From Schaalia georgiae DSM 6843 (GTDB lineage Bacteria > Actinomycetota > Actinomycetes > Actinomycetales > Actinomycetaceae): 64,000 bases of DNA. The stretch lies in the NCBI RefSeq assembly GCF_000429245.1, contig NZ_AUBM01000006.1, forward strand, positions 69,051 to 133,050. Reading direction: 5' to 3'. Every line of letters starts with the position of its first letter. Position 1 is the stretch's first letter. Below are positions 57,894 to 64,000 of the stretch, piece by piece. A program made the position numbers and the translations under genes. Under the pieces are notes generated by a model. That model was given only the letters and a program-made list of their open reading frames with translations, searched no databases and was not told the origin of the DNA.

Positions 57894-58248
57894 GCCGCCC
57901 CTGCCCGGAGGGCCCGGGGGCATTGGGACCGGGCGCCGGGTCGGCTTCGAGCGGGTCGACCGGGTCCGGGCCCCGCCCCGCAGGGTGGGAGCCCGGCGGG
58001 CGGGGCGTACAGAGCTCCCGCCCGCGCATTCCCGTCGGCGCTCGAGCAGCGCCAACGGCCTGGGCCACGAACGCTGCGCGACCCGGATGAACGCCAGCGC
58101 CCGGATCAGAAGTCGCAGCCGAGGGGATGCCGTTCTCCTCGTCCTCGAGCCACAAGCACCGACCGTAATCGAGTCTTCGCAAGCATCACGGTTGCGACAC
58201 ACAACGCATTCTCTATTGGATGTTGGTGCATGGGGGGATCTTGACCGT
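57894..58248. other. Boundary between the exporter operon and the toxin island
   Basis: The first 150 bp are GC-rich and non-coding. A 3' scar of an immunity gene lies at 58108-58150. From about 58180 the DNA turns AT-rich, ending in a possible start at 58249 for the damaged toxin gene. No intact gene was seen. Confidence 0.5.
58108..58150 (-). pseudogene. 3' scar of an immunity paralogue
   Basis: On the minus strand this piece encodes LEDEENGIP and then, after a one-base loss, ends in DF and a stop. It matches the last 14 residues of the intact immunity proteins at 61426 and 62079 (LEDEENGIPLDFDYF). At DNA level an unbroken core of about 20 bases is shared. Confidence 0.65.
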
Positions 58249-58403
58249 ATGGATGGTTTTGATGAGGTGATCGCCCGTGTGGAGGGTAAGGACTCAAAGG
58301 AGGCGCGAAGAACTTCAAGGAGACCGTCAAGGGCCTCGGAAAGAAGGTTCCGAAGGAGGCTTCCAGGGAGAAGGGGTACGTTCCAACGAAGTTCTGGAAG
58401 AAG
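58249..58403 (+). pseudogene. Frameshifted front end of the GH-E toxin gene
   Basis: ATG at 58249 with GGGGGGA upstream begins MDGFDEVIARVEGKDSKEA. The protein-like reading then jumps by one base near 58305 to the frame KNFKETVKGLGKKVPKEASR, which runs into the GH-E module. A single base deletion explains this. The normal long N-terminal region of such toxins is missing. Confidence 0.55.
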
Positions 58404-58859
58404 ATGCGCTTGAAACTGGATCCGAGGAAGTACGCGACCTATATCGACAGGGAAGGGCGTTTGGTCGTCGATCCGAAGGATCCCCGTCCGTATCTGAAGA
58501 TGGATAAGAACAGGAAGCCCATTTCGCGTCCGAGTTATCGAAAGGAAACCAAGGGCCATCCGGGGACGGTCGAGGAGGCGTGGCGCCGTGCGCAGAGGAA
58601 GTCTCCCGATGGCATCGTGCGCGATCCTGTGACAAAGACCCCGATCGAGTGGGAGATCGGGCAGCCCCGGAATAAAGTGTGGGATATGGGGCACAAGCCA
58701 GATCAGCAGTACCGTACTGTTCATCAGCAGTATATTGAGCAGGATATGACGCCGGAAGAGTTCCGGGAGTGGTTCCAGGATCCCAAGAACTACAGGCCGG
58801 AGTTGTACTCGTCGAACAGGGCTCGCATGGGTGAGAACACGGATCCGGAGGAGGAGTGA
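58404..58859 (+). CDS. GH-E family nuclease toxin module (orphan)
   Basis: These 151 residues match the GH-E toxin tip, an HNH/Endo VII type nuclease of polymorphic toxins (PF14410). The frame before it reads back to 58290 without a start. The key residues are Gly96-His97 in VWDMGHKPDQ and Glu133 in NYRPELYSSNR, with DPVTKTPIEWEIGQP before them as usual. ATG 58404 is only the first in-frame ATG, so the true start is unclear. There is no secretion or trafficking region. It is followed 4 bp later by an ankyrin gene, which should encode the immunity protein. It is likely a displaced tip that serves as spare cassette. Confidence 0.8.
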   Translation: MRLKLDPRKYATYIDREGRLVVDPKDPRPYLKMDKNRKPISRPSYRKETKGHPGTVEEAWRRAQRKSPDGIVRDPVTKTPIEWEIGQPRNKVWDMGHKPDQQYRTVHQQYIEQDMTPEEFREWFQDPKNYRPELYSSNRARMGENTDPEEE

Positions 58860-58862
58860 GTG

Positions 58863-59438
58863 ATGGGTTTGGAGATCGTTGCCCGGACGGGGAGTTATGC
58901 GGATTTCCTCAGGGCGTACCGGAAGCGGGCCAGGGTGTTCCGCAGGCGCGCCGCGCGCAAGCTGTACGGCGGCAAGTCGTTGGTGATGTGGGCTCTGGGG
59001 AACAACAGCATGGAGGACCGCTATGCGATGGTGGACTTCCTGTTGGAGCAGGGCGCGGTGCCCGGCCCTCCCAACCCGTACGGCGACGGCCCGCTCCACG
59101 TTCTGTTCAGCAGGGTGGACTGGGACAGTGCGAGCGACGCGCGGATCGCGGAGCGGCTCATCGAGATGGGGGCCGATATCAACTTGCGCAACGACAAGGG
59201 CATGGTCCCCTTGAAGGAGTTGCTGCTGCGGAAGGGGACCAGGGCCCAGATGGCCCCGCTCTACCGGCCCTTCCTGCTGGCGCCCGACCTGGATGTCACG
59301 ACACCGGACAGAGGGGGCCACGACCTGGTGGAGGCCGCGCGCCTCCTCCGAGGGGGATTCGCCCTCGAATGGCTGACGCGCTACCGCGACACGGGCCCCT
59401 TCGACTGCACGGCCGACCAGGCCAGCGCAGATCAGTGA
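58863..59438 (+). CDS. Ankyrin-repeat immunity protein
   Basis: The protein has 191 residues. Two or three ankyrin units are visible: DRYAMVDFLLEQGAVP, GDGPLHVLF and AERLIEMGADINLRNDKGMVPLKELL. Ankyrin proteins of this size are a known immunity class next to nuclease toxins. ATG at 58863 follows the GH-E stop by 3 nt and uses GGAGGAG within the toxin 3' end. It probably blocks the GH-E nuclease by direct binding. Confidence 0.85.
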   Translation: MGLEIVARTGSYADFLRAYRKRARVFRRRAARKLYGGKSLVMWALGNNSMEDRYAMVDFLLEQGAVPGPPNPYGDGPLHVLFSRVDWDSASDARIAERLIEMGADINLRNDKGMVPLKELLLRKGTRAQMAPLYRPFLLAPDLDVTTPDRGGHDLVEAARLLRGGFALEWLTRYRDTGPFDCTADQASADQ

Positions 59439-59470
59439 GGGCCGGAGCGGGTCACTAGAGGGTCCCTGTA

Positions 59471-59524
59471 GAATGGCTGACGGGGCACAAGGACACGGAT
59501 CCCTTCGACTGCATGGGAGGATGA
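59471..59524 (+). pseudogene. 3' remnant of a second ankyrin immunity gene
   Basis: The plus frame reads EWLTGHKDTDPFDCMGG and stop. The intact ankyrin protein ends EWLTRYRDTGPFDCTA and a few more residues. The GGAGGA of this scar now serves as the ribosome site of the Imm33-like gene, whose ATG directly follows the scar's TGA stop. Confidence 0.8.
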
Positions 59525-59935
59525 ATGCCGCAACTACGGATACCCGGAGCGTTGAACTGCTTGGCGTCCAAGCAGTTCCTGAATGAGGACGCGCCGCTCG
59601 GCTGGCTGGTGCGCGTCGAACCCGAGGCCCCCGAGGACTCGGGATGGCGCCTGTACTCCCGCGCCGACACCCCGGAGTACATCGAGGGTGACGGGAACTT
59701 CGCGATCGTCCCCTATAACGATGCCGGCGAGATCGAGCCGATGATCCTTCCCGTCTACTTCATGCCGGTGGGCACTGAGCTCCGTTTGTTCTATGACGAG
59801 CAGAACGACAGGCTCCGCTGGTTCGACGAGAATAGCAATCAGGACGGCAAACTGGATGAGGTGCGCTTCGACGACGTCTTCTGGGCGCAGTTCAACCAGG
59901 ACTACGCCGCGTGGGTCGACAAGCTGCAGGAATAG
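59525..59935 (+). CDS. Imm33/DUF2185-like immunity protein
   Basis: These 136 residues resemble the DUF2185 (Imm33) fold: ASKQFLNED, EDSGWRLYSRADTPEYIEG and then NFAIVPYNDAGEIEPMILP. No partner toxin is present in the window, so it is an orphan immunity gene, as often seen in such islands. It is translated directly after the ankyrin scar stop. The family match is from memory and was not searched. Confidence 0.75.
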   Translation: MPQLRIPGALNCLASKQFLNEDAPLGWLVRVEPEAPEDSGWRLYSRADTPEYIEGDGNFAIVPYNDAGEIEPMILPVYFMPVGTELRLFYDEQNDRLRWFDENSNQDGKLDEVRFDDVFWAQFNQDYAAWVDKLQE

Positions 59936-60004
59936 GTGGAGTCGTATTGCGATCCCGCTGACGCGGTGCGGTCCCGGTGCGGCGCCAAGCGCGCGCGGGG
60001 GCTC

Positions 60005-60200
60005 ACGGCGGCGGAGTCCGCGGCTCGGATAGCCGCTCCTCCCCTGGGACCAGGTTCGACAGCCGCGCCCGCACTCCGAACACCGGATCGTGCTCACTAT
60101 TGAAGTAGGCGACGTCCTCGTCGGGGGATGGATCCGAGGTGAACACCCTCAGGATCAGAACCCGAGGAACGGAAACCGAGAATGGATATCCCTGATGATA
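60005..60200 (-). pseudogene. Decayed immunity paralogue (DUF6301-like)
   Basis: On the minus strand it encodes LGFRSSGSDPEG, then after a +1 shift near 60148 FTSDPSPDEDVAYFNSE and FGVRARLSNLVPGEE. This matches residues about 35-85 of the intact protein at 61426. Both ends are missing. It lies just before an intact, oppositely oriented paralogue. Confidence 0.8.
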
Positions 60201-60233
60201 GAACTCGGTCACTAGCGAAGGGAGATGCGGCTG

Positions 60234-60764
60234 GTGGGTAACGACTTCACGTTCCGCGTGGTGGGGGAGCGGCGCTTCGCCGAGGTCGTCGACGCGTGGG
60301 TCGGCCACACGTGGCCGATGCCGGTTGAGGAGGCGGTCGCACTGTGCATGGGCTTCGGTTGGGAGCAGTCGCCCCAGAATCCCCGGGTGTTCACGTCCGA
60401 TGCCATTCCTGACGAGGCGTCGTCGTTCTTCACCCATGTGCGTGGGTTCGTGAACATGTTCAAGATGCCGGTCACCGATATCGCCGACGAGGGCTCGTGG
60501 GACCGGGCCGCCGTTGAGGCCCGTGCGGTCTTCGAGCGCTTCGCGGGCCTGCTCGGTGACCACTACGGCGTTGCGCCCGCCCTGGAGGTGGAGGACGATG
60601 GAGGAAGCCGCAGCGCCGAGTTCTTCTTGCCCAACGGCGTCTACTTGAACCTGGGGGCGAACCAGGGGTCGGTGTCGCTGGTCCTCTACTCGCCGGACGA
60701 GGCGCGCTTCCTGCGCGAGGAGCGAGAGAGGCAGTCGCTCGGGATGCCCGCGGTCGACTCGTGA
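60234..60764 (+). CDS. Immunity-type protein, divergent DUF6301-like paralogue
   Basis: The 176-residue protein shares the core GHTWPMPVEEAVALCMGFGW and FTSDAIPDEASSFF with the three other paralogues here but is the most divergent. GTG at 60234 is chosen because AAGGGAG lies 9 nt before it and directly abuts the alternative ATG at 60225. I recall this Actinomyces family as DUF6301; it is unverified. No toxin is adjacent on this strand. Confidence 0.7.
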   Translation: MGNDFTFRVVGERRFAEVVDAWVGHTWPMPVEEAVALCMGFGWEQSPQNPRVFTSDAIPDEASSFFTHVRGFVNMFKMPVTDIADEGSWDRAAVEARAVFERFAGLLGDHYGVAPALEVEDDGGSRSAEFFLPNGVYLNLGANQGSVSLVLYSPDEARFLREERERQSLGMPAVDS

Positions 60765-60830
60765 CACACGCGAACCCTAGGGAACGCGTGGTGGGTTCGC
60801 GCGGATGGCTTGGCAGCAGGAGAGCATGAC

Positions 60831-61370
60831 ATGAGGAGGGGCGACGCGTCCGTGGAGTTCGAGGCGGTTCCCACTGAGCGGGCTGTTGAGATCATGCGGG
60901 CGTGGGCGCTGCACCGGTGGCCGATGACGGTGGACGAGGGGGTCGGGGTGTACACGGGCCTGGGTTTCACTCCGCGTCCGGGGGATCGGACATTCTTCAC
61001 GTCGGACATGTCGCCCCGGGAGGCTGACTCGTTCCTCGTCGTTGAGGGGGATCTTGTGGGGGAGGTGTCGTTGCGGTTGTCGAACTGGGTGCCCGAGGAG
61101 GACTGGGAGCGCTCCCTGCCCAAGTCGCGCGCGGCTTTCGATGAGTGCGTGCGGGCGTACACGGAGGTGCTCGGCGAGCCGTTCTCCTTCGAGGACGAGG
61201 GGACGGACTTCTCACGCCGGTGGATCCTCGACACCAAAGTGATGGTCGAGCTCGCGGGGAACGAGGCGTTCGTGGAGCTGTCTGTGGACTCACCCGAGGG
61301 CACGGGGGACTTCCTGCGGGAGCTCGAGATGGAAGAGCGCGGCGAGCCCATCGACCAGGACTACTTCTAG
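60831..61370 (+). CDS. Immunity-type protein, DUF6301-like paralogue
   Basis: The protein has 179 residues. The shared core is ERAVEIMRAWALHRWPM, then FFTSDMSPREADSF, LRLSNWVPEEDW and the ending EMEERGEPIDQDYF. ATG at 60831 has AGGAGA 7 nt upstream; the TTG at 60810 is less likely. It is convergent with the paralogue at 61426 and is separated from it by 55 bp. Its toxin partner is not in the window. Confidence 0.75.
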   Translation: MRRGDASVEFEAVPTERAVEIMRAWALHRWPMTVDEGVGVYTGLGFTPRPGDRTFFTSDMSPREADSFLVVEGDLVGEVSLRLSNWVPEEDWERSLPKSRAAFDECVRAYTEVLGEPFSFEDEGTDFSRRWILDTKVMVELAGNEAFVELSVDSPEGTGDFLRELEMEERGEPIDQDYF

Positions 61371-61425
61371 CCGTGCGCCGACAGGGGCGCCACCGGAAGG
61401 CGCGGCCAGGATAGCCGCGGCCGGG

Positions 61426-61950
61426 CTAGAAGTAATCGAAATCGAGCGGGGTGCCGTTCTCCTCGTCCTCCAGCTCGGAAAGGTGGCACTCCGCCTCTTC
61501 CGGTGATTCGACCGAAGCGGTGATCAGAGCCTGGTTTCCGTTCAGCCCGACCCCTGCCCCATTGTCAAGGAACCACTGAGCCTTGAAAGACGACTCCGTG
61601 CTCTCCCTGGAGTAGGGGGCACCGAACACCTGGGAGAACGCGGCGACGTAAGACTCGAAGACCTCCCTGGAACGCGGCAACGACGCCGCCCATCCCTCCT
61701 CGGGGACCAGGTTCGTCAACTGCACCCGCACTCCGAACACCGAACCGTTCTCACTGTTGAAGTAGGAGACGTCCTCGTCGGGGGACAGATCCGAAGTGAA
61801 CGCCTCACGGTCAGAACCCGCGCAACGGAAACCGAGATCGGTGTAGACCCGCACCCCCTCCTTGACGCGCATCGGCCATGTGTGCAGCGCCCACGCCCGC
61901 ATGATCTCAACAGCTCTCTCAACAGGAACGGCTTGGAACTCCACAGGCAC
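61426..61950 (-). CDS. Immunity protein, tandem copy 2 (DUF6301-like)
   Basis: The 174-residue protein is nearly the same as the copy at 62079 over residues 10-40 and 80-115 and differs mainly at two loops: DREAFTSDLSPDEDVSYFNSEN, and near VGLNGNQALITAS. GTG at 61948-61950 has GGAGGGG upstream and gives exactly the same length as the paralogue. The open frame upstream is not protein-like. It follows the first copy in the direction of transcription and may protect against a related toxin. Confidence 0.8.
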   Translation of the reverse strand: MPVEFQAVPVERAVEIMRAWALHTWPMRVKEGVRVYTDLGFRCAGSDREAFTSDLSPDEDVSYFNSENGSVFGVRVQLTNLVPEEGWAASLPRSREVFESYVAAFSQVFGAPYSRESTESSFKAQWFLDNGAGVGLNGNQALITASVESPEEAECHLSELEDEENGTPLDFDYF

Positions 61951-62078
61951 ACCACTCCCCTCCACTAGGTCGTTGACTGATCGCTGCAACCCTCGCCAAG
62001 CCGCATCCACCCGTACTTTTCTCTGTGGTGTCCAGGCCGGACCCACCGGAAGGCGCGGCCAGGATAGCCGCGGCCGGG

Positions 62079-62603
62079 CTAGAAGTAATCGAAATCGAGC
62101 GGGATGCCGTTCTCCTCGTCCTCCAGCTCGGAAAGGTGATAACCCGCGTACTCCGGTGATTCGACCGAAGCGGTGACTAGCGCTTGATCCCCACCGACTT
62201 CCACACCCGCCCCATTGTCAAGGAACCACTGTGCGCTGAAATCCGACTTCGTGCTCTCCCTGGAGTAGGGGGCGCCGAACACCTGGGAGAACGCGGCGAC
62301 GTAAGACTCGAAGACCTCCCTGGAACGCGGCAACGACGCCGCCCACCCCTCCTCGGGGACCACGTTCGACAACTGCAGCCACACATTCGAAATGACACCA
62401 TGATCGCTGGTGAAGTAGGAGACGTCCTCGTCGGGGGACAGATCCGAAGTGAACATCTCAGGATCAGAACCCGCGCAACGGAAACCGAGATCGGTGTAGA
62501 CCCGCACCCCCTCCTTGACACGCATCGGCCACGTGTGCAGCGCCCACGCCCGCACGATCTCAACAGCCCGCTCAGTGGAAACCGCCTGAAGCTCATGACT
62601 CAT
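62079..62603 (-). CDS. Immunity protein next to the polymorphic toxin (DUF6301-like)
   Basis: The 174-residue protein begins MSHELQAVSTERAVEIVRAW. ATG at 62601-62603 has GGAGG upstream; an ATG four codons earlier is the alternative. It follows the toxin stop by 44 bp on the same strand, the normal place for the cognate immunity gene. It is acidic, as expected for an inhibitor of a basic nuclease tip. The mode of action is inferred only. Confidence 0.8.
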   Translation of the reverse strand: MSHELQAVSTERAVEIVRAWALHTWPMRVKEGVRVYTDLGFRCAGSDPEMFTSDLSPDEDVSYFTSDHGVISNVWLQLSNVVPEEGWAASLPRSREVFESYVAAFSQVFGAPYSRESTKSDFSAQWFLDNGAGVEVGGDQALVTASVESPEYAGYHLSELEDEENGIPLDFDYF

Positions 62604-62647
62604 CTCAACCTCCATAGGGTCATTCTTCTGATACTACAGCACTGTTC

Positions 62648-64000
62648 TCACAATTGCGCGTCGATATGGTCTATGGTCCTCTGCTCGAGCGTGAACGGCG
62701 TTGATTTATAGGTCGTACTACCCAACCCACTGGTGTTAGTGACAGAAACCACATTATTGAGTTGTACATCCCCATTCTTGATCCGGCGCCAGAACTCCGG
62801 ATTGTCCCTCATCAATTGGAGGAACTCCTTGTCTTGGCGGGCGATGTGATTGAGGTACTCGGGTGTACCCTGTCTCAGTTTCACCTTCTGCCCGTTGGGC
62901 AGGATGTCCGTGGCCTGTCCCATATGTGGGCTCCTGCCCTCTTTTACCCCTTTCGATTCAATGAAGTCCAAATTCTTCAAACGCTCATCCACAGCAAGCA
63001 CATCGAAGCGCCTATTGCCAGCACCCGAGCCCCCGACCCCCGGAATCACATGGCGCGGCGGATGAAAATTGTTCGCCGCATACTCCGCCCCCAACTGCCC
63101 GAGATCCTCACTTGCCCGCTTTTCCATAACGCGCGCTTTGGACAGCCGGTTCGCCTCCCACTGCACCATCTTCCTTTCAAATATAGACTTTCCTTTTTTA
63201 CGCATTTTCCTAAGAGTCTTATTGCAATTACTTGCGCTTACATCAGAGGTGCTCAGCCCGCGCTTCTCGATCTTCTCGATGTACTTCTTCTTCCTCGCGT
63301 TCGCCTTCTTCCCCTTTTCGATGAGTTTCTTTGCCCGCTTCTCCGCCTTCTCCGCAGTCCACATGCGCTTCCTGCTCTTCACAAGCTCCTTGAGATCGGT
63401 CCCCTTTTTGCCCTTCAGAAACTTCTTACCAAGGTCTTTGAGTCCTTTGAGTCCTTGTTTGCCTTTCTTGAGGAGGGATTTGAGTAGTTCGAGCAGGCCT
63501 TTGAGGGAGGTGAGTTGCTTGAACAGGGATTTGGCGGATTTGAGCAGGCCGGTGATCTTGGCGCCCATCTCGGCGGCTTTGGCCCCGACCTTGATCTGGA
63601 CTTGGGCGATGATGGCGGGGATCGCAAAGCCCACAGTGACCACCGCCTCGATGATCGCCGAGGCGAGGGTCCCGATGATGTTGGCGATCGCGTCGCGCAC
63701 GAGGTCGTGGACGACCTTGACGACCGTCGCGAGCACGCCCAGCGCCCCGCTCATCGCCGCCGCGGCCTTGCCCGCGGTGCGCAGGCTCTTGGACACGTCC
63801 CCGTTGGCCGCCAAGTACCCCATGGCCGCGGCCCCGCGGGCGTCGGCCATCAGCCCCTTGGCGTCCATCTCCAAGTCCTCGGCCAGGCCGCCCATCGCCT
63901 CAGCGACGTTCCCCCACGTCTGGGCATTGGCCTTCACCTGGTCCGCGTCCCCGGCCAACTGCTCCAACCAGCCCTTCATCGGGTTGAAGTGCTCGATCAG
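62648..64000 (-). CDS. Polymorphic toxin with C-terminal PD-(D/E)XK-like nuclease tip (partial)
   Basis: The gene runs off the right edge. An ATG lies at 63979, but the frame is open and protein-like before it (LIEHFNP), so the start is outside. Numbering from that ATG (443 residues): residues 1-70 are helical and resemble WXG100/LXG regions of type VII substrates (TWGNVAEAMGGLAEDL). Residues 75-135 are hydrophobic and 140-300 are Lys-rich coils. The tip (about 300-443) has Asp326, Glu341 and Lys343 in RRFDVLAVD and FIESKG, a D-x(n)-E-x-K nuclease pattern. Its DNA is clearly more AT-rich than the surroundings. The toxin call is inference from layout plus the adjacent immunity gene. Confidence 0.75.
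   Translation of the reverse strand: MIEHFNPMKGWLEQLAGDADQVKANAQTWGNVAEAMGGLAEDLEMDAKGLMADARGAAAMGYLAANGDVSKSLRTAGKAAAAMSGALGVLATVVKVVHDLVRDAIANIIGTLASAIIEAVVTVGFAIPAIIAQVQIKVGAKAAEMGAKITGLLKSAKSLFKQLTSLKGLLELLKSLLKKGKQGLKGLKDLGKKFLKGKKGTDLKELVKSRKRMWTAEKAEKRAKKLIEKGKKANARKKKYIEKIEKRGLSTSDVSASNCNKTLRKMRKKGKSIFERKMVQWEANRLSKARVMEKRASEDLGQLGAEYAANNFHPPRHVIPGVGGSGAGNRRFDVLAVDERLKNLDFIESKGVKEGRSPHMGQATDILPNGQKVKLRQGTPEYLNHIARQDKEFLQLMRDNPEFWRRIKNGDVQLNNVVSVTNTSGLGSTTYKSTPFTLEQRTIDHIDAQL

What the first reader, a model, noticed from the sequence alone, without database searches (positions are those of the whole stretch)
58108..64000. Polymorphic toxin island with an expanded and decaying immunity array
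Seen: a toxin with a helical front and a D-x(n)-E-x-K tip at the right edge; four intact members of one immunity-like family in both orientations; one frameshifted copy; one 3' scar; an orphan GH-E tip with ankyrin partner; an Imm33-like orphan. Known: type VII and contact-dependent toxin loci swap C-terminal tips and keep spare immunity genes. Inference: a competition locus under strong turnover. The pairing of the DUF6301-like family with a PD-(D/E)XK-like tip may be undescribed.
Basis: partly seen in the sequence, partly recalled or inferred. Interest (0 to 1): 0.8.

Follow-up and report, generated by a model that had tools for sequence, protein, structure and literature searches.

The report
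Nuclease-like toxin with DUF6301 immunity arrays
An actinobacterium carries what looks like a weapon protein tipped with a nucleic-acid-cutting enzyme fold, and the small genes behind it, from a protein family of unknown function, most likely protect the cell from that tip.

Summary
The edge toxin is complete just outside the window (575 aa, window 62648 to 64375) and follows YbaB-like and EspC-type genes; an EssC-like type VII ATPase lies about 19 kb away. Its C-terminal tip matches no Pfam or NCBIfam family but carries an E...D...ExK...Q pattern, is modelled with a PD-(D/E)XK-like core, and links by sequence profile and structure comparison to UPF0102 (PDB 3fov). The four small genes are DUF6301. 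The pairing is general: of 27 distinct tips examined, 24 have DUF6301 on the same strand within 330 bp, behind several kinds of N-terminal part and in three families of Actinomycetota; the two tips with none have lost the catalytic pattern. Tip and DUF6301 divergence correlate (r 0.82). DUF6301 is most likely the immunity family of an unnamed REase-fold tip; arrays reach nine copies. The plus-strand half (GH-E tip, ankyrin, Imm33, two DUF6301) looks like a second operon that lost its delivery half. DUF6301 also occurs without this tip. Toxicity and binding were not tested. New member of a known kind.

The parts
62648..64000 (-). Polymorphic toxin, 575 aa; continues to 64375 outside the window (L008:6648-8375)
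   Evidence: complete ORF; N-terminal half 56-58% identical to the toxins of contigs C11 and C12, 36% to C3
62651..63190 (-). C-terminal tip of the toxin, PD-(D/E)XK-like (E36, D63, E78, K80, Q107 in tip numbering); stretch used for alignment and model
   Evidence: conservation; link to UPF0102; model and structure comparison
62079..62615 (-). DUF6301, proposed immunity gene, first behind the tip
   Evidence: PF19818, 61.6 bits; 36 bp behind the tip hit
61426..62046 (-). DUF6301, second copy (83% identical protein)
   Evidence: 58.4 bits
60810..61370 (+). DUF6301, opposite strand
   Evidence: 66.5 bits
60225..60764 (+). DUF6301, opposite strand, most diverged copy
   Evidence: 53.8 bits; 31-32% identical to the other three
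60036..60181 (-). Internal DUF6301 fragment, in two frames, both ends missing
59525..59935 (+). Imm33 gene, probable partner of a GH-E tip
   Evidence: 55.9 bits; Imm33 follows the GH-E toxin on C11
58860..59438 (+). Ankyrin-repeat protein, possible GH-E immunity protein
   Evidence: Imm-ank is listed as a GH-E partner in PMC3482391 (passage)
58404..58859 (+). GH-E tip without its delivery half
   Evidence: 73.4 bits; 35% identical to the tip of the C11 toxin
58207..58286 (+). Leader and start region of a YbaB-like gene, fused out of frame to toxin linker and GH-E tip
   Evidence: 89% to L008 leader; three-frame reading
58076..58150 (-). Remnant of a DUF6301 3-prime end
   Evidence: 75-76% identity to the 3-prime ends of the two minus-strand copies

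Best explanation
The locus encodes a type VII-type polymorphic toxin whose C-terminal tip is a PD-(D/E)XK-fold nuclease, and DUF6301 proteins are its immunity proteins. Steps: the YbaB-like and EspC-type small proteins and the helical N-terminal half take the toxin to a type VII machine (inferred from gene order and an EssC-like ATPase nearby). The tip enters a neighbouring cell and cuts nucleic acid with its D / E-x-K site (inferred from motif and modelled fold). DUF6301 binds and blocks the tip in the producer and its kin (inferred: DUF6301 follows the tip, not the N-terminal part; shown as gene order only). Extra, diverged DUF6301 copies may widen protection to variant tips and be reshuffled between copies (inferred). 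In the window a second, opposite operon with a GH-E tip lost its delivery half through a deletion and survives as tip and immunity genes (deletion scar seen; history inferred).
Confidence: 0.8

Rival explanations
1. DUF6301 proteins are chaperones or targeting partners that help export the toxin, not immunity proteins.
Against: DUF6301 goes with the tip across several N-terminal types and is absent next to the same N-terminal half with other tips. It lies behind the toxin, even behind orphan tips without any N-terminal half. Multiple diverged copies per toxin fit immunity better.
Confidence: 0.1
2. The tip is not a nuclease: the E / D / ExK pattern is a coincidence or the domain has another activity.
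For: No match to a nuclease family in Pfam or NCBIfam; PDB sequence search best E 0.75 to an unrelated protein; modest structure scores.
Against: D, ExK and Q are kept in 22 of 27 tips, and the five exceptions are three orphan or truncated tips and the two tips without DUF6301. Profile and structure both point to UPF0102 / 3fov.
Confidence: 0.1
3. The DUF6301 arrays are mainly a general store of immunity genes against foreign toxins of several kinds, and only the first copy, if any, serves the local tip.
For: DUF6301 also stands in A. oris next to Imm5 and SsdA-type deaminase toxin genes without this tip. Two of the window copies lie on the opposite strand from the toxin. C3 has eight copies, only 36-66% identical to the copy C3_11512.
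Against: 18 of 25 DUF6301 clusters of the family sample hold a tip of this kind, and tip and first copy diverge together. This is compatible with the main reading; it differs in what the extra copies do.
Confidence: 0.25

Closest known systems
Polymorphic toxin systems with REase-fold tips, Tox-REase-1 to -10 (Zhang et al. 2012, PMC3482391; abstract, section 22 and passages seen)
   Same: C-terminal REase-type tips with D-[EQ]xK sites on interchangeable N-terminal parts (type VII, PrsW), toxin-then-immunity order, orphan cassettes. Tox-REase-2 is listed as 'E, DG, [DE]xK, T, W', Actinobacteria, T7SS (WXG) and PrsW, immunity '-', which resembles this tip.
   Different: The Tox-REase-2 model PF15646 does not match the tips: no match at E 1 or better at a tip in 12 tip-bearing genomes, none in 18 tips. 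DUF6301 is not among the immunity partners in the passages I saw.
esaG / tipC / tsaI immunity gene strings of type VII toxins in Firmicutes (PMC9484751; abstract and outline seen)
   Same: Strings of non-identical immunity paralogues behind a type VII toxin; evidence of recombination between esaG copies, as suggested here by clustered differences between two copies.
   Different: Other protein families, other phylum; the EsaD nuclease is another toxin.
UPF0102 (PF02021; PDB 3fov, RPA0323)
   Different: A short stand-alone protein, not a tip; no DUF6301 within the 11 kb fetched around the G732 copy.
Homogeneous polyimmunity loci (PMC3482391, passages of section 39)
   Same: Tandem paralogues of one immunity family, close together in one orientation in G042, G083 and G131.
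   Different: Here the arrays lie directly behind a toxin, and in C3 an orphan tip splits the array; the paper says such loci are never interrupted by toxin cassettes.

Membership tests
Polymorphic toxin system | Shared N-terminal half with different C-terminal tips | tested here: met
   N-terminal halves of C2, C11, C12 56-58% identical, C3 36%; tips differ
Polymorphic toxin system | Toxin gene followed by a small gene tied to the tip; orphan tip cassettes | tested here: met
   orphan tips on C3, C5, C11, C12 and the GH-E tip of the window
Polymorphic toxin system | Toxic tip neutralised by its partner | not testable with these tools
   Needs expression experiments
PD-(D/E)XK nuclease superfamily | D ... 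(D/E)xK signature conserved | tested here: met
   22 of 27 tips keep D, ExK and Q (read from the alignment)
PD-(D/E)XK nuclease superfamily | Sequence-profile relation to a member | tested here: met
   UPF0102 protein in G732: E 2.5e-5 for one genome, hhalign 89%, PF02021 1.6e-21. That UPF0102 has the REase fold is recalled
PD-(D/E)XK nuclease superfamily | Core fold | tested here: inconclusive
Tox-REase-2 (PF15646) | Match to the family model | tested here: not met
   18 tips; 12 genomes; only match 0.164, not at a tip
DUF6301 (PF19818) | Match over the curated cut-off | tested here: met
   four window proteins, 53.8-66.5 bits against 27.2
GH-E (PF14410) | Match over the curated cut-off | tested here: met
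   73.4 bits against 25
Type VII secretion substrate | Small EspC / WXG-type partner gene next to the toxin | tested here: met
   PF10824, 31.9 bits against 23.5
Type VII secretion substrate | WXG100 or LXG domain on the toxin | tested here: inconclusive
   Window toxin: no family; one relative, L058, matches WXG100_2 below cut-off, 18 against 27 bits
Type VII secretion substrate | EssC/EccC machine in the genome | tested here: inconclusive
   FHA-FtsK protein, EssC E 1.4e-142 but below the model's cut-off; other machine genes not looked for
Type VII secretion substrate | Export through the machine | not testable with these tools
   Needs experiments
Homogeneous polyimmunity locus (PMC3482391) | Same orientation, never interrupted by toxin cassettes | tested here: not met
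   Window copies lie on both strands; in C3 an orphan tip splits eight copies into four and four. The G042, G083 and G131 arrays do fit in orientation

The most novel reading that the evidence does not exclude
One REase-fold tip family travels between type VII-type and PrsW-like delivery proteins across Actinomycetota together with DUF6301, and arrays of up to nine DUF6301 copies are reshuffled by recombination between copies, so that a cell holds standing protection against tip variants it has not yet met; when a tip loses its catalytic residues, the immunity gene is no longer kept.
Probability: 0.3. Interest if true: 0.6.

Novelty: new member of a known kind. Interest (0 to 1): 0.45.

Why it matters
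It gives a likely function to DUF6301, a Pfam family of unknown function, and names its target: a REase-fold toxin tip that no Pfam or NCBIfam model recognises in the 18 tips scanned. The arrays offer a direct test of how many related immunity genes share out protection against one toxin family, in actinobacteria outside the well-studied Firmicute examples.

Tried and rejected

Rows dropped before counts: L079, L081, L082, L083, L085 as repeats of G112, G083 and G149 loci; the frame-split tip of L086 (two rows) counted once; the UPF0102 hit in G732 not counted as a tip; four of 27 tips left out (C11 fragment, G100, G112:C24, G390).

Full report
What is there. The window is contig C2:69051-133050 of an unnamed 2.5 Mb genome. 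The reported island is real. Beyond the right edge the toxin gene is complete: 575 aa, preceded on the same strand by a 107-aa EspC-type gene and a 140-aa YbaB-like gene. About 19 kb from the toxin start lies a 1458-aa FHA-FtsK protein that matches EssC (1.4e-142, below that model's cut-off). Three more toxins of the genome share the N-terminal half: C11 and C12 at 56-58% identity, C3 at 36%. Their tips differ: GH-E in C11, an unassigned tip in C12, a relative of the window tip in C3. That is the hallmark of a polymorphic toxin.

The tip. Pfam and NCBIfam give no significant family for 18 tips. The conserved pattern is G-x-x-G-x-E, D, E-x-K-G, Q, D. AlphaFold2 (8 sequences, pLDDT 74.9, pTM 0.67) gives a long helix, strands with D63 at the start of one and E78 and K80 in the next, then helices and two more strands. 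The PDB comparison lists mostly REase-like folds (3fov, LHK-Exo, SPARDA, Hjc, RecB nuclease, splicing endonucleases), each with a modest score, plus coiled-coil matches to the first helix; Foldseek leads with HincII at E 0.029 and puts 3fov 38th. Independently, the tip profile picked a UPF0102 protein in another genome (hhalign 89%; PF02021), and that protein's PDB relative is 3fov, 'UPF0102 protein RPA0323', the top row of the structure comparison. Sequence and structure meet on the same family.

The partner. The genome holds 16 DUF6301 matches over the cut-off, in five loci that each hold a tip of this kind: C2 (4), C3 (8), C12 (2), C11 (a broken one), C5 (1). Profile searches for the tip alone found it in 10 of 151 genomes of a family sample, 8 of 347 of an order sample and 4 of 396 of a phylum sample (one of these four being the UPF0102 protein). 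DUF6301 was found in 14, 13 and 4 genomes of samples of the same size and handles, of which 12, 12 and 3 over its cut-off; both were found in 9, 7 and 3. The samples partly overlap. A scan of named genomes with a four-tip alignment gave eight loci, all Actinomyces, three of them new. In all I examined 27 distinct tips: 24 have DUF6301 on the same strand within 330 bp, measured between profile hits. Of the other three, G390 has it 2,460 bp away and G100 and G112:C24 have none in the fetched stretch. Leaving out the five seed tips (one of the seed loci, C3, had been found through DUF6301) and counting two tips inside giant ORFs of the phylum sample as misses, it is 19 of 24.

Why immunity rather than delivery. 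DUF6301 tracks the tip. The same N-terminal half with a GH-E tip is followed by Imm33, and with another tip by a 166-aa protein without Pfam family. The same tip on membrane proteins that look PrsW-like, on a second helical type and on other N-termini keeps DUF6301 (the PrsW likeness is by eye and recall, Pfam gave no hit to the one scanned, L061). The two tips without DUF6301 lack the D, the K of ExK and the Q. Divergence of tip and first DUF6301 correlates over 23 pairs (Mantel r 0.82, P 0.0001); the trend also shows between loci of one genome, where species descent cannot cause it (C2 against C12: 56% and 45%; C2 against the two C3 tips: 24-27% and 22-26%).

Against, and limits. DUF6301 is wider than this pairing: by my grouping 7 of 25 DUF6301 clusters of the family sample have no such tip (two of the seven are below the cut-off and were not fetched), and in other families it is fused to TY-Chap3 or stands alone. 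In A. oris it stands near an SsdA-type deaminase toxin and Imm5. The fold of DUF6301 is unassigned. Nothing here shows toxicity, cleavage or binding.

History of the island. The two minus-strand DUF6301 proteins are 83% identical. Their genes differ at 77 of 572 aligned bases, in clusters (longest identical run 72, P 0.0015; sum of squared gaps not reached in 20,000 shuffles), as recombination between copies would give; the aligned stretch includes a strongly diverged 5-prime end, which adds to the clustering. On the plus strand, 58207-58286 is the leader and start of a YbaB gene, followed out of frame by toxin linker and the GH-E tip, then ankyrin, Imm33 and two DUF6301. Contig C11 has GH-E toxin, Imm33, a broken REase tip and a broken DUF6301 in that order, so the plus-strand half reads as a second operon that lost its delivery half. 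The DUF6301 fragment at 60036-60181 and the remnant at 58076-58150 share the minus orientation and flank the GH-E part, so they may be one gene split by it (inference). Orphan tips decay: C3's orphan lacks the E of ExK, C5's lacks D, E and K, C11's is cut short, C12's is intact.

Relation to what is known. Toxin-then-immunity order, orphan cassettes and tandem immunity copies are described (PMC3482391: abstract, section 22, passages; PMC9484751: abstract and outline). The ankyrin neighbour fits a listed partner of GH-E tips, and Imm33 is listed with other HNH-type tips (passages). What I did not find in print, by the searches 'DUF6301' and 'PF19818' (zero papers in an open-licence library), is DUF6301 as an immunity family and this unnamed REase-fold tip as its target. 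I call it a new member of a known kind.

Noticed in passing
L118:9016-11511 (-) and L119:4675-7170 (+), two Actinomyces genomes (G100, G112:C24): PrsW-like membrane proteins (by eye) with a tip relative that has lost D, K of ExK and Q and has no DUF6301, in the same gene neighbourhood in both genomes (a succinyl-CoA-synthetase-like gene nearby, by eye). Possibly a retired toxin kept for another use.
   Followed up: partly
L134:962-10999 (+) and L135:3-9248 (-), genomes G516 and G697: Tip relatives with an intact D and EAK inside giant open frames (12,041 and 4,416 aa by the tool), with DUF6301 on a different contig of each genome.
   Followed up: partly
L113:4596-5588 (-) and L116:4524-5516 (-): DUF6301 fused behind a TY-Chap3 peptide-binding chaperone domain, far from any tip of this kind in the fetched stretch.
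   Followed up: partly
L063 and L064 (G112, A. oris): SsdA-type deaminase toxin and Imm5 genes with single DUF6301 genes but no REase-like tip.
   Followed up: partly
L008:14342-15967 (+), about 5 kb beyond the toxin operon, outside the window: Another probable toxin, with the N-terminal type of L065 and L067 by eye and another tip, between the island and the EssC-like gene; no Pfam family.
   Followed up: partly
L057:7747-14607 (-), genome G042; L059 and L060, genome G083: Nine DUF6301 copies in one array behind one toxin, and arrays of eight and seven full-length copies (plus a fragment) behind two near-identical tips (95%) in one genome.
   Followed up: yes
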